From assembly GCA_949751835.1 (NCBI GenBank), contig CATKHK010000078.1, positions 149,711 to 213,710 on the forward strand: a stretch of 64,000 nucleotides of DNA, read 5' to 3'. The DNA is from Blepharisma japonicum (taxonomy: Eukaryota; Ciliophora; Heterotrichea; Heterotrichida; Blepharismidae). The notes under the pieces are model-generated. The model saw nothing but the letters and a program-made list of their open reading frames with translations, had not been told where the DNA came from and searched no databases. Shown in pieces: positions 36,440 through 60,099 of the stretch; within the stretch, counting starts at the first letter, position 1; each line of letters begins with the position of its first letter. Made by a program: the position numbers and the translations under genes.

Positions 36440-39400
36440 ATGGAAGAAGAACTTCTGGAAGCTTCAAATTTCGAAACCTTGCATCATGAAATTGCTCTAG
36501 CTAACTGACATAAAATGCTGAAAATTATGAAAAATGTGATTTTTGGGTCATTTTCAAAGCTTTACAGGGAAAAGAAAAAAAAATCATCCTTCGATTATTT
36601 AAATCAAAAAATAGCCCAAGTGTTATCAAACCTTATTGTTTCGTTTCAGATTATAAGGTTCAACTGAGGTACAGATTTTAAATCAGACAATTATGCGGAA
36701 ACACATTGAAATGCTTTAGGCTATACAAGCATTGATCAAATCTGTGTTTACATAGGAATTCTAGACGGATGCTTTATAGGCTATAGCTGTTTTATTTTTT
36801 TAGTTATAGCGTCACTAATAATATTAGCAATAAAGAGCCACAAAGATGAAGAATTTAAGTCCCATTTTATTATTATCCCAAGCGCATTGATATCTATTCT
36901 CTCGACAATCTGGTTTATTCCAGCTACACTCATTTTTACGATGGCATTCAAATATTCAGTAATAAGTAAAAATGATGTGCTTGAATATGACTCATGCACC
37001 AATTGCAATTTGAATTTTGGTTGATTTGGCATTTTTGCCTCAGCCATAAGCCTATTCTTGCTGCCATTTTTAGTATATGGGAATGAAATTTTTCAAGCCG
37101 AACTAAGACATACTTTTGCACTCCAAAATTTAAAAGCAAGAGCTCATTCTATTATAAACATCGATATGGTGATTTTTTCATTTATTTTGCCAATTGTCTA
37201 TATTTTTTTGAGCAGCTTTAGTGCATATTTCCATCAAGCAATTCTTATTATATATCCACTATATATCATCATCAAAACAATAAAATACAATCCTTACTTT
37301 AATTCATTTTCAAATATAGTAATCATTGCTAGAAACTTAGCAATTTTACTAGCAACTTTAGGTTTTATTATAGGTGATGTAATTGATGATTCATTAGTTC
37401 CAATTATTTTTTTTTGATTCGTGAACCCTATATTGTTGTTTATATTGTTACATTATATATCAAAGAATTTACAAAAAACCACAAATTTGATATCGAATCA
37501 GTATGAATTTGAAAGGAAATTTAGATGTGTACTGATGGATGAAGCGATAGAAGACCCAGAAAAAGTGTTAAAAGAGTTTGAAGAGGCTTTGAAAAAACCT
37601 TGATTTAAATGTGATAAATTTTTTATCATTTGGCAAACAAATTATTGCCTTTATGTCCTTAAAAATGAAAGGCTTGCCAGAATCCGACTTCATAAAATTT
37701 TCTATTTTAAGTCTACAATAGAAGGCTACTACCAAGAATGAGTCCTTTCTTGTCTTCTCGAAAAAAATAACATCGGAAAGTATGAAGACATAGGCACAAT
37801 ATTTTATTTTCTGGAATTAGAAAAAATAAAAACTAAAGACAAAGTTCTATGTAATAAATTAGCTGATTTCTGAAATGAAGTTGTAGCTCAAAAGCCAAAC
37901 TTTGATAGACTTGAGGTCTTAGCAAATCATGTATCAATAAACTTAAACGCTGTTAATAAAGGATATTCATGCCTCACCAAAAAGTTTCCTAGCAGAACTG
38001 CTTGCCATGATCTTTACGGAACCCTTCAAGTCAATATCCTTCGAAAGCAAGAAAGTGGAAGCTACATGCTTTTAAAAAAAGGGAGTCTCTTTTCGAAAAG
38101 TATCCAAGAAAGCAAGCACAAATCCCTTCCATTTTCCGACTCAAACGGGTTTCTCATTATTTCTGCTGACAAGAGTTCACTTGGACTCATTGTCTATGCA
38201 AATAATGTGGCTGCAAATATTTTAAAGCAGCCAATAAATGGGATTGTAGGTTCAAATTTAAGTACTTATGTTCCATACCCGTATTCAACACATCATGATA
38301 AATACTTGAAAAACTTTATTACCGCTTGCACAGATCCTGAAGCAAGCATTGGGATGTCACATTTTCTCCAAACTGAAAGGGGATATTTAGTGGAATCCAA
38401 TTTTGAGTTACATTTTGTATCTTTAATTAAGCACATCTATTTTGTAGCCATAATGAAGCCAATGCTCAAAACCCGCGAATGTGCTGTGCTTTCTGATAAT
38501 GGAATGATTTATGCACATAGTGAACAATTTTTGCAATATATTGAGTGCCCAAAATCGACAGGAAGAGGCGAAAATATGGCTGATCTTGTTCCTGGCTTTG
38601 ATATTTCTCTTTTAAAATCAGTCTACCCAATTTTGGCAACTCAGAATAAGAAAATTATTTTATTTGTTTTGAAACAAATAGTCAAAAAATCAACAACCTT
38701 CAATTTATTGCTTTTAATTCATAAGAAAGAAGAAGTTGAAGAATGAAATAAAGCGGAGGACGAGTGGCAGAAAGAGTTAGAAGAAAGCTGGCCGAGCAAT
38801 TTCGAATGAAAAGATTTTATTTCTAAGGATAAGCTAATAAGCCATGAAGAAATAGATGAAGAAAACTTAGAATACCAAGATTTTATTGAAAAAGATAAGA
38901 TTGAGACTGTTGCAAGTCCAGCTCTCAATGGAAGCAGCCAATCATCTTCAATATCTTTCAGTAATTCCTATTTAGTTGTTGGAGAAAAAATTATGAAAAA
39001 AGCTCAATTAGTTCTAAAGTCAATTAAATGGTCTCTACTGATATCAATCATGGTCATAATTTCGACCAATCTTGGCATTTTAATATACATCTGAGCAGAA
39101 GTCAATCATTCTGATAACTTAACAAATATTGACCACCTTGCATCTTTAATGAGACATACAACTATTCTTGCTCATTTATCTCGAACAATAGATCTCGCTG
39201 CTGAATATCCTGCTCTCAATATGACTTTTTACAAAACCTCTTTAAAAGAAAGCATAAATATTCTAGACTCTTTGCATCATCCTATCTTGTCAGACTATAA
39301 AAAATGGGATTATTGCTCCAGCTCAGACATTATTAAACATAGTCGAATTCCAATGTGGAGTATGAATGCTTCATATCCTATTTATTACAATTTATATGAT

Positions 39401-40564
39401 ATGATAACTAATTTCATTGAGCATGTATAAGCTATTTAGGGAAAATCTTTTCTAAATTCGTTTGAAAAAAATTATGATTATCAAGATGATGAGTTTTTTT
39501 TAATAGTTAATAGCTTAGGCCAAAGCTATAAAACTTTGAACGACTCTCTTATTGGACTTATGGAATGTGAAATAAATAGAATAAAGGAAAGCGATGAAAT
39601 TATTGTTACTTTATATGTGATAGGGTTTTCTTTGATTGGGCTCGCTAGTGCAATATTTTTAATATTGATGATCAATTTGCATAGAAAATATAATCGAATT
39701 TGAAATTTTATCAGAAAATATGCAACATTTGCATACAAAGATCTTATTAAAAGTTGCTTCGAAAGGCTGACAACTATTCATGATAGCGATCATAGTCAGC
39801 AAGTTCTTAAAAAATTGAAGCAGCAAAAGAACTCTATAAGTGAAAAATTTTCAAAGAAATTTACTATTCTTTGCTCTATAATAGTTCTTATATCATTTTT
39901 GCAAAACTTTATTGTAGGATATGTATTATATCCTCCCTGCAAACAAAATTTAATAAATAGATACCGAGTTTTGGAGGCTTATCACGATCGTATTGGGCAA
40001 ATTTCGGAAGCCTGCTATTGAATTTCTGAATTGTCATTTGGGAAAAATAGCTCATCTAATAGCCTTCTTAATAGATTTTATAAGTTTCCTAATGCAAATG
40101 ATAGCATTTTTGATATCGTTAAAAGATATGAGAATACATTGCATACTACCTCAAACAAAAAATACTGAGGATTGTTTTCAAATACACTAAAAAAACAAGT
40201 TTTTGAATTAATACCAAATTCCTCAGATGATTATTTTGACTTAGGAATTTACTCTGCTTCTCTTCTTTTGAATCGGGAATTGATATTTTATGCCTACTCG
40301 AAAGGTGAATATATAGGTGAAGAAATTAATACATTTTTTGTAAGAGTGTGGAATTTGCAAAATATGATAAGTAGAGCAACTCCATTGCTTGTTTCAAGCT
40401 CAAAGAGTTATGTTAATGATCAAGTGAGCCATATAATTTACATAGCAATATTTTTTGGATTTTTTTATTTTCTAGCCTATTTTCTAATTTATTGGCCTGT
40501 CATCATAAAGGAAAATAATAAATTGCAAAAACTTTTTGAAATTTCCCAGCTTGTCCCTAGATAA
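36440..40564 (+). CDS. PAS multi-pass membrane protein, array copy 1 (1364 aa)
   Basis: ATG 36440 to TAA 40562-40564, with introns 38961-38975 and 39425-39439 (15 nt each). Order: a cytosolic N-terminus (about 1-100), then seven likely membrane helices (about 105-340) around the motif SCTNCNLNFG and a conserved AELRHTFAxxxLKARAHS loop. A cytosolic TmcB-like region follows (517-534, TACHDLYGTLQVNIL), then a PAS domain (about 565-678, FSDSNGFLII to YFVAIMKP). Helix 8 (about 859-881), an extracytosolic Cys-containing domain, helices 9 and 10 (about 1044-1069, 1131-1154), a second extracytosolic domain (EACYWISELSFGKN) and helix 11 close the protein, whose tail is LQKLFEISQLVPR. It matches the ciliate TmcB/PAS S-box membrane family. 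A sensory role is inference; no kinase, cyclase or channel signature is seen. Upstream ATG 36421 is in another frame. Confidence 0.85.
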
Positions 40565-41263
40565 TGACATTAATAAATTAATAGAATATTTCAATAAAAT
40601 AAGATTATATATATCAAAATGGCACATCAGAATCTTAAATTTGTTAAGATAGATCTAACATCTAGAAACCAATGCTGCTTATAAAGTGAGAGTTAAATAT
40701 TTTAGTTGAACTAATAATAATAAAATCAAGAATTATTTTTTTTAATAAAAAAATAATTCGGTTTATTTTAAATTTTCATAGTTAGAATGCAATTTATGAA
40801 GGCTAAAAAAATTATATAATAAATTTTTTTTCTTTTAATGAATCAGAAATATATCCGAAAATAATTAAATTTGCTTAAAAATTAACTTCTTTAATTTCAT
40901 ATTATATATTCATAGATTGACTTTTTAAAATTATTGTCAAAGCTATTAATAAAATGGATTGCTTGCTTTATACCTCATATATTTTAAATTTTGCCACTTT
41001 TGGAAAGGTCCATTTTGCTTTGAATTAATTTACGATATAAGAGGAAGTATAATATTTTGAAGACTTTAATGCTCCCTTAAAGCCTAGCTACAAAATAACA
41101 CCTGAAATCTTTTTTGCTTATTACGTTGTAAAAAGCTCGCCCATAATCTCAAGGTTGCTTCTATTTAATTCTTATAATTTATTATTATTCTTTGTTAAAT
41201 CTTTAGCATCAGAAATTTGTTTATATTTCGAATTTATTCAGCATTTTTTGAGTCATAACTATT
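40565..41263. other. Spacer between array copies 1 and 2
   Basis: AT-rich, with no gene found and no obvious remnant of the array gene. Confidence 0.5.
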
Positions 41264-44200
41264 ATGGAAGAAATAGACATCGGTTTTAAGAATTTTAAGG
41301 ATACCATATATGAAAAATCCTTAATTGGCTGATCCAAAAAAACTGAAAACGCAAAAAAGTCAATATTTGGAGCATTTTTGTTGCTTAGTGACTGGGACAA
41401 AAAGAACTCGACAGCAAGTCGTATATATGAAAAAATATCGCAGATTTTATTGAGTATTATTATTTTTCTTCAGATTGTAAGGTTCAATTGAACTGTAAGC
41501 TTTGAAACAGGAAGCTCTATTGATAAGCATTGAAGAAGTTTGGGCTACTCAAGTATGACTCAAATTTGTGCTGAAGCTGGAGGTTTATATAGCTGCTGTA
41601 CCAGCCTTTGATTCATAACTAGTTTAATTGCTATAATGGCACTATGTCTAGCTGTTATGGTTCATCAAAATAGACGCATTGATCCTTATTTAATCTTGAT
41701 TCCAAAAATCATTTTTTATTACCTTACAACAATTGGATTTATTCCATCTGTAGTCATTAGTATGCTAGGATTTAAATATTCTGCCATAAATCAAGATAAT
41801 GTTTCAGAGTATCAAGCTTGCACTAATTGCAATTTAAATCTTGGAGGTTTTGGTGTATTTATGTCAAGTATTACTTTAATTTTACTGCTATTATTTGCAT
41901 ATGGATATGAGATATGCTCTGCGGAACTGAGGCATACTTTTGCGTCAATCAATCTAAAAGCAAGAGCCCATTCTGATATAGATTTTGCAATTATTAAATT
42001 TTCATTTGCTTCAGCAGTTGTATATGTGCTAACGAATCAAAATAGCAATTATTTCCACCAAACAATTTTGGTATTTTATTCTGCACATATTCTTTATAAA
42101 ACAATAAAAAACCCTCCATATTACAATGCATTTTCAAATTCAATCATTATATGCAGACAATCTGGAATTATATTTATAACGCTGGCTTTTATTTTTGGTG
42201 ACATAATTGACGACCCTCTCATTATAATTTGGTTTTTTTGGTTAATTAACCCAATACTGATTTTTATAGCATTTTACTATGCTATGAAAACATTTAAAAA
42301 TGCCGGAAAAAATGAAAATTGACTGCTGGATCAATATAAGTTTGAGCTGCATTTCAGGCATTCATTAGTTGCTGGCTCTTCATCCGAATCATCAGAGATG
42401 ATAAAATATTTTGATCAAGCTTACAAAACTCAATTTTTTAAAGTTGATAAATTATTTTTAATATGAGAAACAAATTATTATATATACACGCTACAAAATG
42501 AAAGACTAGCAAGGCTAAAATTCCGGAAGATTTTCTATTTGAGCTCTAATAATGTTGAAGCCAGCTATCAAGAATGATTGATAGCAAGATTTTTTGAAAA
42601 AAAGAATATTGGAGTTCATGAAGACATTAGTACAATTTACTATCTTTTAGAATTAGAAAATATAAAGACTAAAGATCGGTATTTTTGCAATAAATTAATA
42701 GATTTTTGGAATGAAGTAGTTACTTCAAGTCCTAAAATAGAAAGGCTGAATTTGTTGTCAAAAAAAGTATCAGAAAATTTAGATGTGCTGGATGCTGGAT
42801 ACTCCAACCTTGTGAAGAAATTTCCTAATAGAATTGCTTGCCATTCGCTTTATGGTTCTCTGCAGGCTGATATCTTGAAAAGAGAAGAAAGCGGAGCTCA
42901 TTTAATACAAAAAAAGGAAAGTCTTCTTTCATTGCAACATCAAGAAAACCAAAATAAGTCACTATCATTTTCTGATTCTAATGGATTTTTAGTCATATCT
43001 GCAAATGAAAGTACGTTTGGAACAATTGTTTATGCAGATTCTATAGTATCGCTTATATTAAATCAAGATATAAACTCCATCATTGGATCAAAATATTATG
43101 CCTACATTCCAGAATATTTCGCGAAAAATCATGATAAGCATTTGGAAAATTGCATTGAAAATAATAAAAATTTAGAGTCAAGCTTATTTTTTATACACTT
43201 CATTATGACTGCTCGTGGAAGCTTAGTTGAATGCGCATGCGAAGCTCATTTAATTCCCTTAATTCAAGAAACTTATTTTGTTGCAGTAATGCAGCCAATC
43301 TCAAAAATGAGGGAGTGTGCTTTAATTTTAAAAGATGGAACTATTTGTGCACATAGTGAACGATTTTTAAACTTTATTCAAAGTCCTAAAATCTCAGGAA
43401 ATAATGAAAATATTGATGAACTTATTCCAAACCTCAATTTTTCTTCGCTTAAATCTCATGATTCAGTTCTGATTCATTACAGTAATAAGCCAATCTTATT
43501 TGTTTTAATAAACACAACAACAAAATCTACAATTTTCAACCTTCTGCTTTTAATCCATGATAAAAATGAGATTGAGGAGTGAAATCAAGGAAAAGATGCT
43601 TGGCAACAAGATTTAGCAGAGAAGTGTCCAAGAAGATTCCAAAAAATAAATTTTAATGAAAACAATGCTTATAAAGAAATCGAATATGAAGAAAAAAACG
43701 GCCTAGAAAATCGTGAATCGTTGATAAAGGAAGAAAATAAAATTAGTGAGAGGATAAATTCAAATACATTAGGAAGCAGCCATTCATCAATGAGTTTCTC
43801 AAGTAATTCCTTATTTAGGCATTGGAAAGAAAATGAAAAGAAACGCACAGGCTACTTTGAGTTGGATAAAATGGGCTTTACTTGCATCAATACTGATGAT
43901 TATCACTATGACTTGCGGGATTTTATTATATATCTGAAAAGAAATAAGCCACTCAAATGAAATAGAAAGTGTAGAAAATCTTGCTGGTTTACTTCATGAA
44001 ATGACCATTATGGCCCATTTAGCTCGAGCTATAGATCTTTCAACCAATTATTTAGATCTTAATACTTCTTTCTATTTATCATCGTTTAGCACAAGTGTAA
44101 ACTCATTGGATTCTCTTCAAAATACGATTCTGTCTGATTATGACAGTTGAAGCTACTGTTCCAGCTCAAATATTGTTAAAAATGAAATAATACCAATTTG

Positions 44201-45428
44201 AAATATTTGGGCTATACATCCTTTGCAATATTATACTCTTTATGACGCAATGGCTCTTTTTGTGAAACATGTAATACATATTCAGGGAAAATCATTTCTT
44301 GATGCCTATATAAGTAATAGTGACTACAAAGGTGATGAATTATTTTTAATCGCAAACGGTTTAGGCGATACATATAAAGTCCTGAGTTCCTCAGTTAAAG
44401 GGTATTTGAAATGCGAAACAGACAGAGTAAAAAATGATGATTCGCTAATTCTTCTTTTGCTACTCATGGATGGATTTTTATTAGTTTCTTTGAGCTTTGG
44501 AATGATTCTTCTGATAATTCAATTTCATAGGGCATATAATGGGATTTGAAATTTCATAAGAAAACAATCTAACGATGCATATATTGAGCTATTTCATAGC
44601 TGCATTGATAGACTTTCAACTGTTCACTGCTGCATCCCAGATCAGCAAGAAATTAGGAAAAAATGCAAAGGTATAGAAAAACCGATTAATGAAAATTTTT
44701 CAAAAAGATTCGCTGCTTCACTCTCTATAATTATCATATGCTTTGGTTTTTGTGTATGATCTATCGCTGATGAATACAACGCATCTTGCAAAGCTAATTT
44801 GATAAAAAGATATGAACTACTTGAAGCTTATTATATCAGAGTTAGCCAAATTTCAGAGGCTTGCTACTGGGTCTGTGAGTTATCTATTGGAAAAAATGAG
44901 ACAACTGAAGATATTTTTGATGGCATCTATGAATTTCCTAATGCTAATCACATGATTATTGATGTCACTGATAGATATACTCAAACATTACACATAACTT
45001 CAAATCTAAAATACAGAGAGCTATTTTCCAATAATTTGCACAAATCGTTTTTTGAGAAAGTTCCAAACGCACTTGATCATATTTTTGATTTTGGAACTTA
45101 TTATGGATCAATGATTATGAAAAATGAGTTCACCTTCTATGCTTATTCGAATGATTCAAATATTCCCAAAGAAATTAACAGGTTTTTGTTCCAGGCTGGA
45201 ACTTTGCAAAGCATGATAAAAAGTAAAACTCCAGTTTTCAATAAAGGGTCAAGAGATTTCGTGGATGCTCAGTTTAAAATTATTGTTTATGTAATGATAT
45301 GCTTTGCTATTTCTTCTCTTTTGGCATATTTTTTATTGTACTTACCTATGATAGTGAGAGAAAATCACAAACTGCAAAAACTTTATGAAATTTCTCAATT
45401 GATTCCGTCTACGAATAACAAAAAATAA
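41264..45428 (+). CDS. PAS multi-pass membrane protein, array copy 2 (1377 aa)
   Basis: ATG 41264 to TAA 45426-45428. The first intron (43803-43818, GTAATTCCTTATTTAG) is 16 nt. Removing it shifts the downstream frame by one and brings it into line with all the other copies; left in, the gene looks frameshifted and would end within 50 codons. The second intron (44271-44285, GTAATACATATTCAG) is 15 nt without a stop, recognised only from its paralogues. The PAS domain starts near residue 568 (FSDSNGFLVISAN). This is the most diverged member: its N-terminus differs (MEEIDIGFKNFKD), a CC pair precedes helix 1, and the PAS end reads FIMTARGSLVECAC where the others have FLQTERGYLVE. Function as for copy 1. 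Confidence 0.85.
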
Positions 45429-46582
45429 TTATGTAAAATATATGATTAAAATAGGCTAAACAGGCCTTTACGTCAGATAGCTAAACTGTTAATTAAATTT
45501 TTTATTTATTTTGCCTATTGAATTATTATTTTTTCTTTATTTTTTTAAAAATTAGGTTTGTTCTGATTTAAATGAACTTCAGTGCAGTCAGCATACATTT
45601 ACTATAAAAAAATTTTTTAGCTGCTTTATATATCTGATTCAATGATTATTTTGCTGCTGAAATTAGTTTTTAATCATTATTTATGAGAAAGAGAGCTTTA
45701 AATAATCAATTCTCTTCTAAAGAATATCCAAATTCTCAATTTTTATCTAATTTCAAAAAGCTATACAATAAACATATTCTAAAACCCTTTAAGATATTAT
45801 AAATATATATATGCTTGGTATTTATCGCTGAATAAATTTTCATAATAGAGAAATTAATTACTGTTCTGATATTAAGATTCTCTTCAATAAACGAATCTTC
45901 AATAAAAATGCTCTAATCTTTATATCTTTTTATTGCAAATTAAATGCTTATTATGAAATAGGTATGCTCATCTTTAAAATTACTCTTTCCCATGAAGTAT
46001 AGAGAATTGATTTCAAGTATTTATGAAAAACTATTTTTCAGATTTTTAACGCTCTTCTCATATTTTTTGTTCATATTTGTAAATTATATTAGAAGAAATA
46101 TCAAATTGCAAAAATTTTATGAAATTTGTCATTAATTTTATTCCTAAACTTAAAAAACTGAATTTTCTAATATTAATCTGCAATAGAAAATAGTGACCAT
46201 AAAATGAACATATATATTTAGCTTATCAAAATTGAATAAAATTGATTATTTTTCTTAGTTCTTATGCTTTCTAATAAAATTATGCAAAAATAAGAAGAAA
46301 AGTTGAGTTAATAATACGTATGCTTTACTTAATATGTATTATTGCTAAATACATTCTAATAAAATTTCTAAATAAATAATAGGAAAGTTATTTAACTGTA
46401 ATCCCCACTGAATGAAAAATAATCTAGCATTTTTGCTTAGTTGTATATCTTCTAAAAATTACCCTATAAAGTTTCATTCGAAAAAAATTCATAAAAAGTT
46501 CAATAAGCAATTTTAATCATAAAATAATTTAGATTAAGAATTTGACACTTTTTGTTGTAATAACTCCGAGCATAATAAATTA
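45429..46582. other. Spacer between array copies 2 and 3
   Basis: The longest spacer in the array. Apart from the C-terminal remnant at 46049-46135 I see no coding sequence. The region is AT-rich with stops in all frames. Confidence 0.5.
46049..46135 (+). pseudogene. Remnant of an array gene 3' end
   Basis: The stretch reads TLFSYFLFIFVNYI then RRNIKLQKFYEICH and TAA. It lines up with the extreme C-terminus of the array proteins (for example LAYFLLYLPMIV then RENHKLQKLYEISQ in copy 2). No matching upstream sequence is recognisable nearby, so this is the last trace of a lost copy or of an unequal exchange. Confidence 0.6.
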
Positions 46583-49500
46583 ATGGAAGAAGAACTTTCG
46601 GAGAGTTCGAATTTTAAGATAGATTCTTATATAAAGAGCTCAATGAGGTGATCGAACTTTATATTAGCTGCAAAAAATTCATTATTCGGCGCTTTCTCTA
46701 TTATTTATAATTGCAAAGAGAAAACTTTGATGGGAACTAAAATTAATGAAAAAATATCCCAGATTTGCGTAAATTCTGTGATCTGTCTTCAGCTGATAAG
46801 GTTAAATTGAGGAACAAACTTTGACACACAAAATAGTGTAGATAAGCATTGAAGAGTTTTAGGTTATGCGAGTTTTGATCAGATATTTGCAGATTCAGGA
46901 ATATTATTTTTAGGCTTTATAATCTGTGGAATTTTAATAATTACCCTTACAATTTTTATAGTATTGCTGGCTATAAAAAGTTATAAAGGATCAAGCTGAG
47001 ATTCGCATTTAATTTTTATCCCGAAAGTTTTATTGCATATTTTTTCTACTATTGGATTTATACCGTGCACACTTATTTTGATGCTAGCATTGAAATATTC
47101 TTTAATAAATGAAGACAGTATAAGTGAGTATGAGTCATGTGACGCATGCAATATGAATTTTGGGGTATTTGGGGTATTTTTCTCACTTATTAATTTGTTT
47201 TTATTGCCGTTTCTTGTATATGGCAGAGAAATTTGTTCAGCTGAATTAAGGCATACTTTTGCTTCAAATAGCCTCAATGCGAGAGCACATTCGCATATAG
47301 ATCTCGAAATGGTTACTTTTTCTTTTATTTCCCCAATTATTTACGTATTATTTAACCAATATCGATTTTATTATCATCAGATAATTCTTATTACTTATTC
47401 AGCCATTATTATTTACAAAACAATAAAGTATGTTCCTTATTTCAACTTATGTTCAAACGCATCAATTATTATCAGAAATTCAGAAATATGTTTTACAAGC
47501 ATAGCTTTTATATTTGGTAAAACTGTTGATAATTCTTCAGTGACAATTGCAATTTTTTGGATTATTAACCCAATATTGATCTATATAGCAACCAGCTATG
47601 CCATAAAGAAGTTTAATTCTGTAACAAAAAATAAATTGTTTTTTATAAACCAATATGAGTTTGAAAAGCATTATAGATATACTTTGATGGATGATTTGTG
47701 CACGGATAAGGAAAAAATGCTAGACGAGTTCTATAAAGGTAGAAAAACCAAAAAATTTAATGCAGATAAGCTTCTTATCATTTGAGAGACAAATTATTGT
47801 TTATATATTTTGCAAGATGAAAGATTAGCAAGGCTAAAATTTAATAAAAGTTTTGCTTTAAGATCACAGCTGGAAGGATGGTATCAAGAATGAAAAATGA
47901 AGAAATTACTCGAAAAAAATAATACTGGAGTATACGAGGATATTGGTACCATTTATTACTTTTTAGAGCTAGACAAAATTAAGAGAAAGGATGAAATTTT
48001 ATGCAATAAAATGATGGATTTTTGAAGTGAAATAATTTCTCAAAATCCAAGAATTGCCAAATTGAATTTACTTTTGAAGCATGTATGAGAAACTTTAGAT
48101 AAAGTCAATAAAGGATATGGCAATCTTCTAAAAAAATTCCCTGATAGGTCTGCCTGCCATGACCTTTATAACACTTTGGAGATTGAAATTCTTAGAAAAA
48201 ATAAAAATAGATCGTCTTTGTTTAAAAAAGAAAACCTATCTTTAGCAGGTCATCATGAAAGCAAAAATAAATTCATGCCATTTTCAGATTCAAATGGATT
48301 TCTCATTGTTTCTGCAGATAAAAGATCATTTGGAACTATTGTATATGTAAATTCAACTGCATCTCAAATCTTAAAGCAAACAATTTCTTCCATTATTGGC
48401 TCAAAACTTGAGGCCTACATTCCAGCTCCTTATTCATGGTCCCATACACGATTTATGAAAAATTGCCTCAAAAGCAGCCTTAACCTTCAATCAAGTATAA
48501 GAATGTCTCATTTTCTCCAAACAGAAAGAGGTTACATCGTCGAATGCTATTTTAGAGTCCACTTAGTTTCCTTAATTAAACATATATACTTTATCGCTGT
48601 AATGAAGCCAGTTTCTAAAAAACGAGAATGCGCGTTACTTTCTAATGATGGGCAGATTTATGCCCATAGTGAATCATTCTTACAGAAACTCCAATGCTCA
48701 AAGCTGACTGAAAAAAACGAAAATATCAAAGATCTTATTCCGAGTCTCAATTTTTCGCTGCTCTCATCACATGATCCTGTATTAATCACTCATGAAAATC
48801 AAGTTATACTTTGTGTTTTAATAAAAATTAAATTGAATTCGACATTTCTAAATCTATTTCTTTTGGTTCATGATGAAACTGAAATTGGAGAATGAAAAAA
48901 TGGAGATGACGATTGGCAAAAGACCTTAATTGAAAAATCACCCAATAATTTTGAAATAATAAAAAATTCAAATAGACTTACAATACATGAAGAAAGTGAA
49001 GAAGAAACTCGCTTAGGTAATACAGAGTTTTTTGAAAATAAAACAAATAATAAATCGAATACAAATACTGCTGAAAGCAGCTACTCGTTTATAAATATTT
49101 TAAGTAAATAATATTTAGATCTTGAAGAAAAGATGAAAAAAAGTGCAGAAAAGACATTGAAACTCATCAAATGAATTTTAATTGTATCGATTTTGATCAT
49201 TATTTTTATAAATATTGGACTTTTCCTTTATATATCAACAGAAGTAGAGCTTTCAAATGATTTAACCAATGTAAAAAACTTAGCTACTTATATTCAACAA
49301 ATTACTATTCTTGGCTATACTTCTCGAATGCTTGATCTTTCAAATAAATATCCAGGTATCAATGTAACATTTTATGAGTCAGCTTTCAATCAGAGCCTCA
49401 ATATTTTAGATTCTCTTCATGAAAATATAATTGATGATTATAATTTATGAAGTTATTGCTCATTTTCTGACGTGGTCAAGCAAGAATTAATTCCTGTGTG

Positions 49501-50746
49501 GTATCGTAATTCTTTAGATCCTCTCTCTTATCATACCTTCTATGACGTGATTTCTGAATTTATCAGCCATGTGATTTTTATTTAGGGAAAATTATTTCTT
49601 AATCTTTTTCAGCAAAATGATTACTATCTAGACTATGAATATTTTTTGATTATAAACGGTTTAGGTGAAAGCTATAAAATTCTGAATGGATCGTTATCAG
49701 GCCTTATTGAATGCGAGAAGAAGCGAGTAGAAGATGATGATGAAATGATCTTGATTTTGGTTTTTATAGCCATAATGTTGCTAATTATTATAAGCACAGT
49801 TTTGCTAGTTTTGGTAGCGAATTTCCATCAAAAAAATAATCAAATTTGAAATTATATCAGAAAAAAGGCTATCAAGGCACGTGTTGAGCTTTTTCAAATA
49901 TGCTTTGGCAGACTTTCATTAGTTCACAATTCAATTCCTGATCAGCAAGAATTTCAATTTAAAAAAAATTCCAAAATGCATTTGATCAATGAAAAATCCT
50001 TTATTAAATTTGTGCTTCTTTGTTCTATACTAATAATTGCATCTAACTTATGCGATATCCTTATTGGGTATTACTTCTATCCATCATGCAAAGATAATTT
50101 AATCAAAAGATACGAGCTTATAGAAGCTTATTATATCAGAGCTTCCGAAATTTCTGAAGCTTGCTATTGAGTAGCAGAGCTAGCACTTGGAAAAAATGAT
50201 TCTTCTGCTGAACTCCTTTATCCTCACTTTAGCTTTGCAGATCCTAGTCACATGCTTTTTGATGTTATTGATAGATATGATACATCAGTGCATATCACCT
50301 CAAATGAGAAATATAGAGAGCTATTTTCGAGGAAATTAGAAATTCTTTATTTTGAAAAATATTCTGATGCTCCAAATATAATTTATGATTTAGGTACTTA
50401 TATTGGAGCAATTCTTTTGAGGCGAGATTTTACATTCTATGCTTATTCTAATGTGAAAAATATTGTTGAACAGATAGATAAATTTATGAGCCGAGCTTGA
50501 GTATTACAAACTCTGATAAGAACACGAACTCCAGTATTTGATGAAGGATCCAAAGATTATGTGAATTCACAGGTTAATTATATTTTTAACGCTGTACTTT
50601 ACTTTGGAATTTTCTTTATAGTTACATATTTTATTCTGTATTGGCCAGTAATCGCAAGTGAAAATAAAAAATTACAAAAACTTTATGAAATTTCCCAACT
50701 TATACCTTTAGTGAACAGTAAAGATATTTTGCAGTCAGGTAAATAA
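46583..50746 (+). CDS. PAS multi-pass membrane protein, array copy 3 (1377 aa)
   Basis: ATG 46583 to TAA 50744-50746. Introns are 49104-49118 (GTAAATAATATTTAG) and 49571-49585 (GTGATTTTTATTTAG); both contain in-frame stops, which proves that splicing is needed. The same domain order as copy 1 is present, with SCDACNMNFG in the membrane core and the PAS domain from about residue 567 (FSDSNGFLIVSADK). The linker between the PAS domain and helix 8 is especially Asn/Glu-rich (ENKTNNKSNTNTAESS). The second extracytosolic part keeps EISEACYWVAELALGKN and the tail keeps LQKLYEISQLIP. The N-terminus (MEEELSESSNF) resembles copy 1, so copies 1 and 3 may be closer to each other than to copy 2. Confidence 0.85.
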
Positions 50747-51118
50747 CTTATAAAGTGTAAATAATCGTAAATATAAATTACGAAAAAGATATTTTATTTT
50801 ATTTTATTTAAGTTAAAAATAAAGAAATTTTAAGATAAAGTTCTACTCAAACTATAAAAACGATTAAAAATTCAATAATGTTTTAAAGATGATAATGATT
50901 AGATAGCATTTTTGATAGAAAGCTCAATTAAGATACATTTCAAATTCGCCGTTTAAGTGAAACTTCTAATTTTAAACGCTTAATAGCCTTAATTTTGACT
51001 TTCAAAATGTTTTCAATCATGTAACTTGGATTTTAATAGATTTAAAAATTAATCACGAATGCTTTAAAATTACCCATCACAGATTTACAACATATAATAT
51101 AATTTTTTCTGATAAAGA
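50747..51118. other. Spacer between array copies 3 and 4
   Basis: AT-rich and without coding sequence. This is the shortest spacer in the array. Confidence 0.5.
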
Positions 51119-54100
51119 ATGGAAGAACAAACAGAAAATTCGAATTTCAAAACAGTTTCGCCAGAAAATCATACGCTGAATTGGTCCAACATATTTGAAG
51201 TTGCCAAGAATTCATTATTCGGTGCATTTTCTTTTCTTTATGTCTCTCGAAAAAAAAAGTTCCATAAAAACAATTTAAACAAAAAGATATATCAAGGATG
51301 CATAAATCTAGTCCTTTCCTTGCAGATAATAAGGCTGAATTGAGGTTCAATTTTAAATCCTCATAACTACATGGAGCAACATTGGAATATTTTAGGATAT
51401 GTAAACCTTGATCAGATTTGTGCAGAATCAGAAAGTCTATTTGGTTGCCTTTTAGCTTTAAACGTTTTGATTTATTCATGTTTGATATTTATTTTATTGT
51501 TAGCTATAAGAAGCTGTAAAGGAAAAAGCTGTGAGTCTCAGTTATTATGAGTACCCAGAATTATTTTATATTTGCTTTCCACTGTTGGATTTATTCCATG
51601 CATCCTCATTTTTATGCTGACTTTGAAATATTCTCTTATAAATAAAAATAGAGTAGATGAATACGAGTCATGTGTAAGCTGCAATTTGAATTTTGGCTCA
51701 TTTGGTGTTCTTTTATCTGTTATTAATTTATTTATATTACCATTATTGGCATATGGAAGAGAAATTTTTTCTGCTGAATTAAGGCATACCTTTTCTACTG
51801 ATAATATAAAGGCAAGAGCTCATTCAATTATTGATATAGATATGATCACTTTTTCATATATTACATCAATTGTTTATGTGCTATTTAATCAATATACAAG
51901 TTATTTTCATCAAGTTATACTTTTAGTTTACCCAATCTGCATTGTTTACAAGACAATCAAATACATTCCTTACTTCAATTTATATATAAACTCTGTTATT
52001 ATTATCAGAAATTCATGCATTTTTTTTATGACTTTAGCTTTTCTATTTGGAGAAGCTATTGATAATTCCTTACTAGTGATAGGAATTTTTTGGATAATTA
52101 ATCCGATATTGACCTATATCATCATGAATTACATGTTAAAATGATTTTCTCGAGCAAAATGCGATAATTTAAAGAATCAGTATGACTTTGAGCAATATTA
52201 TCGAAACATTCTAATAGAAGAAGATTCTGAACATCTAGCAGATATGTCGAAGCAATTTAATAAAGCTCTAAAAAAAAACACTTTTAAAGCAGATAAGCTT
52301 TTATGCATTTGGGAAACAAATTATTGCCTTTATTCTGTGCAAGATGAAAGACTAGCAAGAGTAAAATTCCATAAAACTTTTTTATTTAAATCCACATTTG
52401 AGAGCTCTTATCAGGAATGAGCAATTACAAAGCTTTTAGAACAAAACAATACAGGTGTTTACGAAGACATAGGCACTATTTATTATTTTTTAGAGTTAGA
52501 CCATATAAAAGCAAAGGATAGAGTCTTATGCAATAAAATGCTCCATTTCTGAGCCGAATTATACTCCTCAAGGCCTAGAATTGAGAAGCTGAATTTATTA
52601 TCTAGTCAAGTCTCAGAAACATTGGATGAGGTAAATAAAGGGTATTCTACTCTTGTAAAAAAATTCCCAAATAGAGCAGCTTGTCATGACCTTTACGGCT
52701 CATTGCAAATAGATATACTGAAAAAAGATGAAATTGGGAGTAAATTACTTTTAAAAAAGGAAAGTCTTTATTTAAAGGATCTACAAGAAAACAGAAGCAA
52801 TTCTTTATCATTTTCGGACTCTAATGGATTTTTGATTATTTCAGGAGATCCGTCATCATTTGGGATAGTTGTATATTCAAATGCTATTGCTTCAACTATT
52901 CTAGGACAGTCTGTAAATAGTATTATTGGGTCAAAGCTTGATACTTACATCCCAGAGCCTTATTCGATCAACCACTTAAAATATATGAAGAAATACATTA
53001 AAAATTGCCTTAGTCCTGAATTCAGCCCAATAAAATCGCATTTTTTGCAAACTGAAAGAGGTTATCTTGTTGAGTGTCATTTTTCGGTCCATATGGTTTC
53101 TTTGATTAAGCATATCTATTTTGTTGCTATAATGAAATCAGTTTTAAAAAATAGAGAATGTGTACTGATTTCTGATGAAGGAGAAATTTATGCCCATAGC
53201 TCTCTGTTTTTGCAATATATCAAATGTGCGAAATCTTCAGTAAAAAATGAAAATATTAGCAGTCTTATTCCAGATCTCAATTTTTCTATGTTAAAATCGC
53301 AAACTCCAATATTAATAAGCCATAATGGAAAACCTCTACTGTTTGTACTTATAAAGACGATGATAAAATCTACAACTTTAAATCTTCTACTTTTGATTCA
53401 CAATAAAAGCGAGATTGATGAATGAGATAATGGAGAAGATGAATGGCAAAAAGAGCCTGCAGAAAACAATTTAAATGGAAGCCAGCTACTGCATGTTTAT
53501 AAAGGAATGTCGTCCTATCAGCATAGTACAGGGGATGCAGCCAATAATCAAGAAGAGGGTGAATTATTAGTAAAGTTCGAAGCCAAACTAAACGAGCAGG
53601 GATATTCAAATACAATTGCGAGCAGCCGCTCATCAATGGGCTTTATCAGTAATTATTATTTAGATTTTGGCGAAAAAATGAAAAAAAGTGCTCAATTTGT
53701 CTTAAAAGCAATTAATTGGACAATTATTGTTTCAATAATGGGAATCATCTTAATGAATATAGGGATCTTAATATATATTTGCACAGAAATTAACCATTCA
53801 AACGATCTAGGAAAGGTCGAGCATATTGCATCTTTTATGCAACAAATTTCAAATCTAGCTTTCAGGTCAAGGGCAATTGATCTTTCCACAAAATACCCTG
53901 AACTTGATATAGCATTTTATGAATCCTCACTTAATACAAGTATAAATGTCTTGAATTCTTTGCGAACTGGTATAGACTCTGACTATAGTCAATGAAGCTA
54001 TTGCCCAAGCTCAAGAATAGTAAAAAATGAAATAATTCCTACGTGAACCCGAAATGGTATTAATTACCATACTTTATATGATATGGTGAATGAGTTTATT

Positions 54101-55270
54101 AGCCATGTAACCTATATTCAGGCAAATTCCTTTCTAAAAGCTGTTAAAGAAAACAAGGATTATTATGATGACGAATTTTTTTTAATTAGGAACGGTCTTG
54201 GAACTAGCTACAAAATTATGAATTCTACATTGAGAGGACTTACAGAATGCGAAATTAATAGAATAAGTGATGATGATAACGTGATCCTTCTTTTGATTTC
54301 AATGAATTTTATGCTGCTCTGCATTATAAGTATAATTTTACTTATATTGATAATTAATTTCCACAAAAAATACAATGAAATTTGAAATTACATAAGGAAA
54401 AAAGTAAATTTGGTGAATTTTGAATTATATCAAAGCTGTTTGGATAGGCTATCTGCGGTTCATGATTGCATTCCAGATCAGAATGAATTTCAAAGAAAGC
54501 ATAAAGGAAAAGAAAAATCCATAAATGAAATATTCTCGAAATATTTTGCAATTTTATGCATTTTTCTCATTATGTCATCAATTCTCTATACTTTTCTTGT
54601 AGGTTTGTACTTATATCCTTCTTGCAAAAATAATTTAATAAAAAGATACAAACTACTTGAAGCATATTTTTATAGAGTAAGCGAGATTTCAGAAATTTGC
54701 TATTGAGCATCAGAAATGTCTATTGGAAAAAATTATTCGACTGTTGAAATCCTTAACCCTCACTATGGTTTTGCAGATCCAAACTTTATGATTTTTGATG
54801 CCGTTAAAAGATATAGTATATCAACGCATCTCACTTCAAGCGTGAAATACCGTGGATTATTTACTACTAGATTAAAGGGGCTATTTTTTGAGCATAGTCC
54901 TAATGCTCCAGATGTCATGTTTGATTTTGGGACTTATGCCGGAGCTATACTTTTGAAAAACGAGGCGACATTTTATGCATATTCAAACTCAGAAAATATT
55001 GTGAAAGAAATAAATAGGTACTGAAGCAGGCATATAAAGTTGCAAAACATGATAATTGCTAGAGTACCACTTTTCGATCAAAGCTCTAGGAATTATGTAA
55101 ACGTACAAGTAAGTTATATTATTTACTTAACTTCTTTCTTTGGGCTTTTTTATATTTTGATATATTTTTGCTTATATTGGCCTATAATAATAAGAGAAAA
55201 TCGTAAACTACAAAAACTTTATGAAATCTCTCAGCTTATTCCTTCAGCTAATAATCAAAGAGAAACTTAA
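51119..55270 (+). CDS. PAS multi-pass membrane protein, array copy 4 (1373 aa)
   Basis: ATG 51119 to TAA 55268-55270. Introns are 53649-53663 (GTAATTATTATTTAG) and 54107-54121 (GTAACCTATATTCAG); the second has no stop and stays in frame if retained. Domain order is as in copy 1, with the PAS domain from about residue 565 (FSDSNGFLIISGDPSSFG). It forms a close pair with copy 5: from about 51380 to 51845 (the membrane core) the two are almost identical, and the linker TGDAANNQEEGELL, the first extracytosolic domain and the C-terminal part are highly similar too. Other parts, such as the PAS end and the last cytosolic segment, have diverged more. Both copies keep all conserved cysteines, so both look functional. 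Confidence 0.86.
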
Positions 55271-55947
55271 TTTTATTGGATATATAAGCATTTAAAAATA
55301 ATCAAATCCATTTTTTCTTAACTGCAATTAAGCATTTAATTTTTATAATAAATTAAAATTTAATCCTAATTTTTCCTTATCATTCTCAAAAAAGAGAAAT
55401 CAAACGCATCAAAGCAGCCAGAAGAAGCATTTAATGCAAATTAATGAAGAAAGAAAGGCAGAATTTATTTCAACATCAGTTTACTATATTCTGAGCAATT
55501 GCCAAATAAATATCATGAAACTCAAACTCAGTATCTCTTTTTACTGAAGAATCCATTTTATTATCCTAAAATTTATTTTTGAATTATTTGAATGTTCGAA
55601 ATTAGAGAAAAAAGATTAAAATTATATGATTATCTGAAATGAAAATTAAAAATAATTTTTTATTTAAGGATTAATAATAAAGCTCTAAATTTTATTTAGT
55701 AAGAATATTTTTGATATAGATGTCATAATAAATATCATTTTGCTGCAAATAACACTATGGTAGTTTATGTTGCTGGCAAAAATTAAAATTTAATCTTTTC
55801 ACAATTAATGTTGCTTGGTGAATATGAATTCTGTTTATTTGAGTTTAAGTATAATAGATCCAGAAAGTTACAAATTTTGAATATTATTAAGTAAATTTTA
55901 TAGCTCTTAAAATAATTTTTTTATAATTATTTTTAAAAACTCAATAT
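55271..55947. other. Spacer between array copies 4 and 5
   Basis: Mostly AT-rich and non-coding. A short minus-strand frame from ATG 55556 (MDSSVKRDTEFEFHDIYLAI, about 42 codons) has protein-like composition but no other support; I do not call it a gene. Confidence 0.4.
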
Positions 55948-58900
55948 ATGGAAGGACAATCAGAAATTTCGAATTTCAAAGTAATTTCTGCAGAAAATAA
56001 TTTACTTACTTGATCAAACATATTTGAAATTGCTAAAAAATCGTTATTTGGAGCGTTTTCATTTCTTTACAAAGCAAGAAAAGCAAAGTTCCATACAAAC
56101 AACTTAAACAAAAAAATATATGAAGGATGCATAAATCTAGTTCTTTCCTTGCAGATAATAAGGCTAAATTGAGGTTCAATTTTAGATCCTCACAACAGCA
56201 TGGAATTACATTGGAATATTTTAGGATATGTAAACTTTGATCAGATTTGTGCAGAATCAGAAAGTCTATTTGGTTGCTTTTTAGCTTTAAACGTTTTGAT
56301 TTATTCATGTTTGATATTTATTTTATTGTTAGCTATAAGAAGCTGTAAAGGAAAAAGCTGTGAGCCTCAGTTATTATGAGTACCCAGAATTATTTTATAT
56401 TTGCTTTCCACTGTTGGATTTATTCCATGCATCCTCATTTTTATGCTGACTTTGAAATATTCTCTTATAAATAAAAATAGAGTAGATGAATACGAGTCAT
56501 GTGTAAGCTGTAACTTGAATTTTGGCTCATTTGGTGTTCTTTTATCTGCTATTAATTTATTTATATTACCATTATTGGCATATGGAAGAGAATTTTTTTC
56601 TGCTGAATTAAGGCATACCTTTTCTACTGATAATATAAAGGCAAGAGCTCATTCAATTATTGATATAGATATGATCACTTTTTCATCTATTGCCTCAGTT
56701 ACTTATGTGCTATTTAATCAATATACAAATTATTTTCATCAAGCTATTCTTTTAGCTTATTCTGCCTACATCGTTTATAAGACAATAAGGTACAATCCTT
56801 ATTACAATTTATATATAAATTCAATTTTTATCATCAGAAACTTAGGAATTTGTTTTATGACGTTAGCTTTTCTATTTGGAAAAGCCATTGACAATTCCTT
56901 GCTAGTAATTGGAATCTTTTGGATAATTAATCCTATTTTGACGTATATAATCATGAATAATATGCTAAAAAGATATTCCAGAGTCCAAAAAGATAATTTG
57001 CAGACCCAGTTTGATTTTGAGCAATATTACAGAAACATTTTAATGGAAGAAGATTCTGAGCACTTAGCAGAAATGTGCAAGCAATTCAATAAAGCTTTCA
57101 AAAAATTCTTTCATAAAACAGATAAACTTCTATGCATTTGAGAAACAAATTATTGCCTTTATTCTATTCAAAATGAAAGACTAGCAAGAGTAAAATTTAA
57201 TAAAATTTTCCTATTAAAATCTACTGTCGAAGGCTCTTATCAAGAATGGGTAATCTCCAAACATCTGGATGATAATAACACTGGGCTTTATGAAGACATA
57301 GGAACAATTTATTATTTTTTGGAATTAGACCATATTAAAGCGAAAGATAGATTTTTATGCAATAAATTGCTCGATTTCTGAGCCGAAGTTTACTCTTACT
57401 TACCAAGAATTGGGAAGCTAAATTTATTATCCAGTCAAGTTTCTGAAACACTAGATGAGGTAAATAAAGGGTATTCTACTCTTATAAAAAAATTCCCAAA
57501 TAGAGCAGCTTGTCATGACCTTTACGGCTCATTGTTATTAGATATACTGAAAAAAGATGAAATTGGGAGTAAATTACTTCGAAAAAAAGAAACTCTTTAT
57601 TTAAAGGATTTACAAGAAAACAGAAGCAATTCTTTAGCATTTTCGGATTCTAATGGATTTTTGGTAGTTTCAGGAGATCAATCATCATTTGGGATCCTTA
57701 TTTATGCAAATACAATTGCTGCAAGCATTTTAGGACAGTCTGTAAATAGCATTGTTGGATCAAAGCTTGAAACTTATATTCCAGAGCCTTATTCTATAAA
57801 CCATTCCAAATACTTGTTAAGATATATAAAAAATTGCTTAAACCCAGAAATCAGTCCTGTAAAATCTCCTATTTTGCAGACTGAAAGAGGTTACTTAGTA
57901 GAGTGCTCTCTTGCTGTCCATATGGTTTCTTTGATTAATCGCATATATTTTGTAGCTATAATGAAATCAGTTTTAAAAAAAAGAGAGTGCATTTTAATTT
58001 CTGAGGAAGGAGAAATCTATGCCTATAGTGCCAATTTTCTACAATATATCCAATGCGACAAACCCTCAGTAAAGCATGAAAATATAACCGATCTTATCCC
58101 AAACCTTAATTTTTCTATGTTAAAAACTCAAACTCCGATCCTTATAAATCATAATGGGAAGCCTCTGCTTTTTGTGCTTATTAAATTGGTAGTAAAATCT
58201 CACACTTTAAACTTGCTACTTTTAATCCACAATAAGAATGAAATTGATGAATGGGATAATGGAGAAGATGAATGGCAGCAAGAAGATGCTAAAAATAATT
58301 TAAACGGAAACCAGCTACTGCATGTTTATAGAGGCATGGAATCGTACCAGCATAGCACGGGGGATATGGCTAATAATCAAGAAGATGCTGAATTACTAGG
58401 CAAGTTTGAAATCAAAATCAATGAACAAGGAAACTCAAATACAATTACAAGCAGCCGCTCGTCAATAAGTATTATCAGTATTTACTATTTAGACATAAGT
58501 AAAAATATGAGACAGAGCGCTCAATTTGCTTTAAAAACTGTAAATTGGACACTTATAGTCTCGATTTTGGGAGTTATCCTAATGAATATAGGGATCTTAA
58601 TATATATTTACACAGAAGTTAGCCATTCAAATGACCTAGGAAAGGTCGAGCATATTGCATCTTTTATGCAACAAATTACAAATCTAGCTTTCAGGTCAAG
58701 GGCAATTGATCTAGCCACAAAATACCCTGAACTTGATATAGCATTTTATGAATCCTCACTTAATACAAGCATAAATGTCTTGAATTCTTTACGAACTGTT
58801 ATAGAAAATGACTATAGTCAATGAAGTTATTGCCCAAGCTCAAGAATAGTAAAAAATGAAATAATCCCTATATGAACCTGAAATGGTATTAATTATTATA

Positions 58901-60099
58901 ATTTATATGATATGGTGAATGAGTTTATTAACCATGTAACCTATATTTAGGCAAATTCCTTTCTAAAAGCTGTTAAAGAAAACAAGGATTATTATGATGA
59001 CGAATTTTTTTTAATTAGGAACGGCCTCGGAACTAGCTATAAAATTATGAATTCTACATTGACAGGGCTTGTTGAATGTGAATCAAATAGGATAAATGAA
59101 GATGATAATGCTATACTTATTTTTATTTTGATGGACTTTTTATTGCTATGCTTTATCAGCATAATATTAACAGTTCTTATAATTAATTTCCACAAAAAAT
59201 ACAATGAAATATGGAATTATATAAGAAAACAAGTAAATGCTGCACATTTTGAACTATATCAAAGCTGTATGGACAGACTATCTGCAATTCATGATTGCAT
59301 TCCAGACCAGAATGAATTTCAAAGAAAGCATAAAGGAAAAGAAAAATCTATAAATGAAAGATTCTCAAAATATTTCACAATTTTATGCTCATTTCTTATT
59401 ATGTCTTCAATTCTCCATACTTTTCTTGTAGGCTTGTACTTATATCCGTCTTGCAAAAATAATTTAATAAAAAGATTCAAATTACTTGAAGCATACTTTT
59501 CCAGAGTCAGTCAAATTTCAGAAGTGTGCTATTGAGCATCAGAAATGTCTATTGGAAAAAATTACTCGACTGTTGAAATCCTTAACCCTCATTATGGTTT
59601 TGCAGATCCAAACTTTATGATTTTTGATGCCATTGAAAGATATAGCATATCAACTCATACCACTTCTAGCATGAAATATCGTGGATTATTTACTAACACC
59701 TTAAAAGCACTGTTTTTTGAGAATAATCCTAACGCTCCAGATGTCATGTTTGATTTTGGGACTTATCCAGGGGCTATACTTTTAAAAAACGAGGCAACAT
59801 TTTATGCATATTCAAACTCAAAAAACATTGTGAAAGAAGTTGATAAGTTCTGGAATAGACAAATAGACTTGCAAAACATGATATTAGCTAGAACTCCTAT
59901 ATTTGATCAAAGCTCCAGGGATTATGTAAACGTGCAAGTAAGTTACATTATTTATTTTACTTCTTTCTTTGGGGTTTTTTATACTTTGACATATTTTTGT
60001 TTATATTTGCCTATAATAATAAGAGAAAATCGTAAGCTACAAAAGCTTTATGAAATTTCTCAACTTATTCCTACAGTCAGCAATCAAAGAGAAACCTAA
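55948..60099 (+). CDS. PAS multi-pass membrane protein, array copy 5 (1373 aa)
   Basis: ATG 55948 to TAA 60097-60099. Introns are 58478-58492 (GTATTTACTATTTAG) and 58936-58950 (GTAACCTATATTTAG). The protein has exactly the same length as copy 4. It uses TGG at several positions where copy 4 has TGA (for example EIWNYIR near 59211 against 54382 in copy 4), which directly shows that TGA is Trp. The PAS domain starts near residue 565 (FSDSNGFLVVSGDQSSFG). The second extracytosolic segment keeps EVCYWASEMSIGKN and the tail ends LQKLYEISQLIPTVSN. This is the last array member; the next gene is unrelated. Confidence 0.86.

What the first reader, a model, noticed from the sequence alone, without database searches (positions are those of the whole stretch)
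36440..60099. Five-gene tandem array of PAS-containing 11-helix membrane proteins
About 24 kb, over a third of the window, is one expanding family. Each protein has a 7-helix-like block, a TmcB-like segment, a cytosolic PAS domain and two extracytosolic domains with conserved cysteines. There is no known catalytic or channel output. PAS ligand-side residues differ between copies while the membrane core is conserved, as expected for a receptor set with diversified inputs. Cell-type or mating-type-linked use is an open possibility.
Basis: partly seen in the sequence, partly recalled or inferred. Interest (0 to 1): 0.7.

Follow-up and report, generated by a model that had tools for sequence, protein, structure and literature searches.

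The report
Tandem array of ciliate sensor-like receptors
Five neighbouring genes in a ciliate encode large membrane proteins that look like sensors, one small outpost of a very large receptor-like family whose internal sensor domain resembles bacterial oxygen sensors.

Summary
The array is real. Read with TGA=W and 15-16 nt introns (a Blepharisma-like code), 36440-60099 holds five intact same-strand genes (1369-1378 aa spliced), 46-54% identical except the last pair (83%; dN/dS 0.175); they are not assembly duplicates. All five carry the Pfam TmcB TPR domain above its cut-off. The array is one of many: the genome has at least 146 TmcB-domain loci, 112 of them within 8 kb of another. New leads: by sequence, PAS1 of this family is closest in the PDB to heme-PAS domains (FixL, DosP), and one of its most conserved motifs places a histidine at FixL's proximal heme ligand (5 of 5 window copies, 79 of 128 family members; 43 of the other 49 carry F/L/I/V, mainly in one clade). 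The first extracellular domain models, at low confidence, as a helical bundle continuous with its membrane helices, like bacterial chemoreceptor ligand domains. Best reading: multi-input membrane receptors of the TmcB-like family. Heme binding, ligand and output are untested.

The parts
36440..40564 (+). Gene 1 (G1), TmcB-like receptor, 1369 aa, intron 39425-39439
   Evidence: TPR_TmcB 27.5 bits
41264..45428 (+). Gene 2 (G2), 1377 aa spliced; intron 43803-43818 and a stop-free 15-nt intron candidate 44271-44285
46583..50746 (+). Gene 3 (G3), 1377 aa; introns 49104-49118 and 49571-49585
51119..55270 (+). Gene 4 (G4), 1383 aa unspliced, 1378 aa if the stop-free intron candidate 54107-54121 is removed; reference copy for residue numbers
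55948..60099 (+). Gene 5 (G5), 1378 aa, intron 58936-58950; 83% identical to G4
51284..52138 (+). G4 N-terminal block with 8 hydrophobic segments (residues 56-340)
   Evidence: averaged hydropathy of 29 family members
52496..52768 (+). G4 TPR_TmcB domain match (residues 460-550)
   Evidence: PF25474 E 2.9e-11
52814..53149 (+). G4 PAS1, FixL-like (residues 566-677)
52973..52975 (+). G4 His619 codon, aligned with the proximal heme histidine of FixL; same residue at 38294, 43130, 48443 and 57802 in G1, G2, G3 and G5
53159..53395 (+). G4 second PAS-like unit (residues 681-759)
   Evidence: strand and helix order, Foldseek spans and one VIA row
53789..54262 (+). G4 extracytosolic domain 1, modelled helical bundle (residues 891-1048, unspliced numbering), Cys962 and Cys1039 (spliced numbering)
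54614..55117 (+). G4 extracytosolic domain 2 (residues 1161-1328, spliced numbering), Cys1164

Best explanation
The five genes encode multi-input membrane receptors of the TmcB-like family. Each protein has an 8-segment membrane block, a cytosolic TPR segment, two cytosolic PAS-like units and two membrane-anchored, mostly helical extracellular domains. Shown: gene structure, family membership, tandem array, purifying selection between G4 and G5. Supported by profile and low-confidence model: PAS fold, helical ECD1. Inferred: the extracellular domains bind external cues; PAS1 is a FixL-like domain that may hold heme or another ligand at His619 and report gas or redox state; the inputs converge on the conserved cytosolic loop and the TPR segment, which recruit a separate output protein (perhaps one of the many cyclases), since no output domain is fused. 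Copies arose by local tandem duplication with partial gene conversion.
Against: Structure models are weak (mean pLDDT 42 and 55), because only window sequences could be aligned. Foldseek superpositions for the PAS model are poor over the whole (TM 0.14-0.19 by query length, rmsd above 10 A, except 1lt0: 4.4 A, TM by target 0.54). The ECD matches are not significant in Foldseek (0 at E 0.001 or better) and de novo bundles and talin score similarly in VIA. Structural ranking of PAS1 does not favour heme PAS over other PAS. The distal arginine of FixL/DosP is rare (4 of 79 in the His class, 0 of 5 in the window). G4 alone matches FixL only at E 0.49. No output domain, no expression or ligand data.
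Confidence: 0.6

Rival explanations
1. PAS1 is a true heme-based gas or redox sensor (O2, NO, CO) with His619 as the proximal iron ligand, and loss of the histidine in the C38/C57 arrays marks a switch to another ligand.
For: FixL and DosP are the top PDB relatives, and FixL and DosP models also appear, far below their full-length cut-offs, in NCBIfam for the two canonical members. The aligned histidine is the FixL ligand (His194 in S. meliloti, passages of PMC10765370 seen). Positions matching FixL Ile210, Leu230 and Val232 are hydrophobic in 76/79, 71/78 and 73/78 of the His class. His loss goes with Gly at the Leu230 position (35 of 48).
Against: Distal Arg rare, Ile209 position acidic in 52 of 79. 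The Ile210 and Val232 positions are hydrophobic in the no-His class too (46/49, 44/48), so they do not discriminate. The register beyond the histidine rests on the gap-free DosP alignment and on FixL numbering counted by me. The motif may be structural in this PAS subfamily. No spectroscopic data.
Confidence: 0.27
2. The family are chemoreceptors or gamone (mating pheromone) receptors, with specificity in the extracellular domains.
For: Two extracellular domains and a large tandemly expanded family; two mating types with gamones in Blepharisma (PMC9942806 passages); TmcB was named for a sexual phenotype in Dictyostelium (recalled, no call).
Against: ECD1 is not faster evolving than the rest in the window (mean 50%); family size (146 or more) fits general chemosensing better than two mating types; no expression data.
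Confidence: 0.15
3. Membrane scaffolds that organise cyclases or channels without binding ligands; PAS and TPR serve only protein contacts.
For: TPR segment, conserved cytosolic loop, no output domain; 87 cyclase-domain matches in the genome.
Against: Strong conservation of a pocket histidine and class-specific pocket residues.
Confidence: 0.15
4. Degenerate or redundant copies maintained only by duplication, or an assembly artefact.
For: G4/G5 share stretches of near identity.
Against: Five of five frames intact, dN/dS 0.175 for G4/G5, copies otherwise 46-54% identical.
Confidence: 0.03

Closest known systems
TmcB-like proteins (Pfam PF25474 TPR_TmcB; Dictyostelium 'tiny macrocysts' protein B recalled from memory)
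   Same: TPR_TmcB domain over cut-off; same order membrane block, TPR, PAS, membrane-ECD-membrane, membrane-ECD-membrane as the canonical members L038 and L039
   Different: Shorter (about 1380 against about 1,700 aa) and without the long acidic linker seen by eye; apart from the G4/G5 pair, G4's first exon is 25-54% identical to the other members compared
FixL and DosP heme-PAS oxygen sensors
   Same: PAS1 sequence similarity and position of the heme-ligand histidine
   Different: Distal arginine mostly missing, no kinase or phosphodiesterase domain, membrane protein with two extracellular domains
Bacterial chemoreceptor and sensor-kinase helical-bundle ligand domains (PcaY_PP, McpS, MCP2201, TorS)
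   Different: No signalling domain recognised; no sequence similarity found; designed bundles and talin score in the same range

Membership tests
TmcB-like family (PF25474) | TPR_TmcB domain over the curated cut-off | tested here: met
   5 of 5 window proteins over the cut-off; 29 of 29 family members match at E up to 0.1
TmcB-like family (PF25474) | Same overall domain order as canonical long members | tested here: met
   L038/L039 against the family: ECD1 97% probability, E 1.8e-11; ECD2 weak, 52%, E 1.4e-4
PAS domain superfamily | PAS fold of PAS1 | tested here: met
   Profile and fold matches to PAS structures, but on a model of mean pLDDT 42; window proteins are below the Pfam PAS cut-offs
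PAS domain superfamily | PAS fold of the second unit (681-759) | tested here: inconclusive
   Strand/helix order and Foldseek spans fit; one VIA row only
FixL-type heme-PAS oxygen sensor | Proximal heme histidine | tested here: met
   5 of 5 window copies, 79 of 128 family members
FixL-type heme-PAS oxygen sensor | Distal arginine (FixL Arg214/220, DosP Arg97; recalled) | tested here: not met
   4 of 79 His-class members, 0 of 5 window copies
FixL-type heme-PAS oxygen sensor | Heme binding | not testable with these tools
   needs purified protein and spectra
LOV photoreceptors | Flavin-binding cysteine motif (recalled: NCRFLQ) | tested here: not met
   0 of 29 members hold the motif or near variants
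Seven-helix GPCRs | Seven-helix N-terminal bundle | tested here: inconclusive
   eight hydrophobic segments by averaged hydropathy, some weak; no PDB profile match for this block at E up to 1
Four-helix-bundle chemoreceptor ligand domains | Four-helix extracytosolic bundle continuous with membrane helices | tested here: inconclusive

The most novel reading that the evidence does not exclude
A ciliate has built a very large eukaryotic set of FixL-like heme sensors: dozens to more than a hundred twelve-helix receptors that each join an internal heme-PAS gas/redox sensor to chemoreceptor-like extracellular domains, with one large clade having traded the heme histidine for a different ligand pocket.
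Probability: 0.2. Interest if true: 0.82.

Novelty: new variant of a known kind. Interest (0 to 1): 0.52.

Why it matters
Receptors behind chemosensing, oxygen response and gamone response in heterotrich ciliates are, as far as I know (recalled), unidentified. A receptor-like family of at least 146 loci with a recognisable, testable ligand residue gives a direct entry: one PAS domain expressed in E. coli would show whether it binds heme. If it does, a eukaryote would have a greatly expanded heme-PAS receptor family outside the bacterial two-component world.

Tried and rejected
No relatives were found in viral contigs (3 pattern matches, 0 confirmed). Papers (10 searches, open-licence PMC library only): 0 papers for 'tiny macrocysts', 'TmcB' + 'ciliate', 'FixL' + 'ciliate' + 'heme', 'Blepharisma' + 'gamone receptor' and 'tiny macrocyst'. 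'Blepharisma' + 'PAS domain' gave 1 review, seen as a listing. One search gave 127 papers; the 20 listed look unrelated by title. One search gave 28 papers, 20 listed. One search gave 44 papers; the 12 listed hold 'PAS domain' 0 times. One search gave 2 papers. PMC9942806, PMC10765370 and PMC13060918 were seen as passages only; all others as listings.

The 146 loci are those at E up to 0.001; 140 of them are over Pfam's cut-off; 150 of 174 candidates were scored, and window gene 1 itself is missing from that list, so the count is a lower bound. No two of the 146 lie closer than 3.5 kb. The two FixL controls are two of the seven PAS places, GAF-rich partial proteins, and in one of them no PAS structure was hit at all, so they are weak controls.

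Full report
What is there. The window is the last 64 kb of contig C78 (149711-213710 of 213710) of a 45.2 Mb, 224-contig genome. Genes read cleanly with TGA as tryptophan and 15-16 nt GT..AG introns, the code and intron size described for Blepharisma stoltei (passages of PMC9942806); the species is not given, so this is an inference. The finding's coordinates are exactly the first ATG and last stop of five tandem genes on the + strand. G2 and G4 carry, at the intron position shared with the other copies, a stop-free 15-nt GT..AG stretch, probably also an intron.

Is it more than chance or artefact? The copies are 46-54% identical, G4/G5 83%, every frame is intact, and dN/dS is 0.175 for G4/G5; synonymous sites in the other pairs are near saturation (pS 0.64-0.70). 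In a midpoint-rooted tree of 29 full-length members the five form a clade (support 0.84) with a copy on contig C27 as sister (1.0). So the array grew by old local duplications, with one more recent pair. In that pair the third-position identity runs from 0.55 to 1.0 along the gene, with identical runs of up to 145 nt, which suggests partial gene conversion.

Family size. A search with G4 gave 38 matching stretches with only 34 of 220 candidates scored. The TPR_TmcB model matches at 146 places at E up to 0.001 (140 over its cut-off; 150 of 174 candidates scored) and in 0 of 14 control genomes; the places are at least 3.5 kb apart. 112 of the 146 lie within 8 kb of another, in arrays on C38 (26 loci), C58 (24), C57 (16), C50 (11) and others. 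The window array is therefore a small one.

The PAS1 lead. The 29-member profile's best PDB match is FixL (E 0.002), followed by weak heme-PAS (YddU/DosP) and thermosome matches. G4 alone also has FixL as its best match, but at E 0.49. The canonical members of the same genome (L038, L039) match FixL at 5.9e-7 and 2.2e-7, then DosP, before any other protein. Two control proteins with PAS matches outside this family did not hit FixL, although in one of them no PAS structure was hit at all. The alignment puts family His619 on the FixL proximal histidine. It is present in all five window copies, 28 of 29 full-length members and 79 of 128 PAS1 sequences. The other 49 carry F 15, L 13, I 12, T 3, V 3, N 1 and a gap in 2; the state changes only 4 times on the PAS1 tree against a minimum of 33 in 200 shuffles, and one clade of 46 holds 45 of the 49. 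The no-His class also differs at other pocket positions, such as Gly at the Leu230 position (35 of 48). Against a FixL-type oxygen sensor: the distal arginine is found in only 4 of 79 and in none of the five, the Ile209 position is acidic in 52 of 79, and two of the three hydrophobic pocket positions are hydrophobic in both classes. Heme binding is thus plausible, not shown, and the protein should not be filed as a FixL-type oxygen sensor.

Of the large domains, PAS1 is the best conserved (56% in nine window pairs, 38.5% over 29) and the 8TM block is lower (51%, 31.5%); only the short C-tail (window) and TM9 (all 29) are higher. The apparent opposite pattern in G4/G5 follows silent divergence. 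Cell-type or mating-type use has no evidence for it here, and one search of the open-licence library for a Blepharisma gamone receptor found no paper.

Mechanism. I commit to a multi-input receptor. External cue binding by the extracellular domains and internal ligand or redox binding by PAS1 are inferred; both would act on the conserved cytosolic loop between membrane helices 10 and 11 (Trp1084, Leu1098, Arg1105, Leu1106 and His1110 in at least 90% of 29) and on the TPR segment, and a separate partner gives the output. The genome has 87 cyclase-domain matches, 39 pairs of them 1.2-1.8 kb apart, and these are candidate partners by inference only.

Verdict. A real and conserved array, ordinary in being a member of a known domain family, unusual in the size of the family and in the FixL-like PAS. 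New variant of a known kind.

Noticed in passing
44271-44285 and 54107-54121: Stop-free 15-nt GT..AG stretches in G2 and G4 exactly where the other three copies have a 15-nt intron with a stop; introns invisible to frame-based gene finding.
   Followed up: partly
51119-55270 against 55948-60099: Patchy silent divergence (third-position identity 0.55 to 1.0, identical runs up to 145 nt), suggesting gene conversion between neighbours.
   Followed up: partly
9758-20794: Very long gene (about 3668 aa) with a malectin domain and six Laminin_G_3 stretches.
   Followed up: no
60379-62022: Gene downstream of the array with a sub-threshold Rubisco-LSMT substrate-binding match; possibly a SET-domain methyltransferase.
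   Followed up: no
genome G000, e.g. C70, C29, C40, C86: 87 guanylate/adenylate cyclase domain matches, 39 pairs of them 1.2-1.8 kb apart, so perhaps about 40 two-domain cyclases.
   Followed up: partly
G000 contigs C38 and C57: Arrays of TmcB-like genes whose PAS1 lacks the heme-ligand histidine and has a different pocket pattern.
   Followed up: partly
window 64000: The window end is the contig end, 3.9 kb beyond the array; no telomere repeat was seen by eye in the last bases.
   Followed up: no
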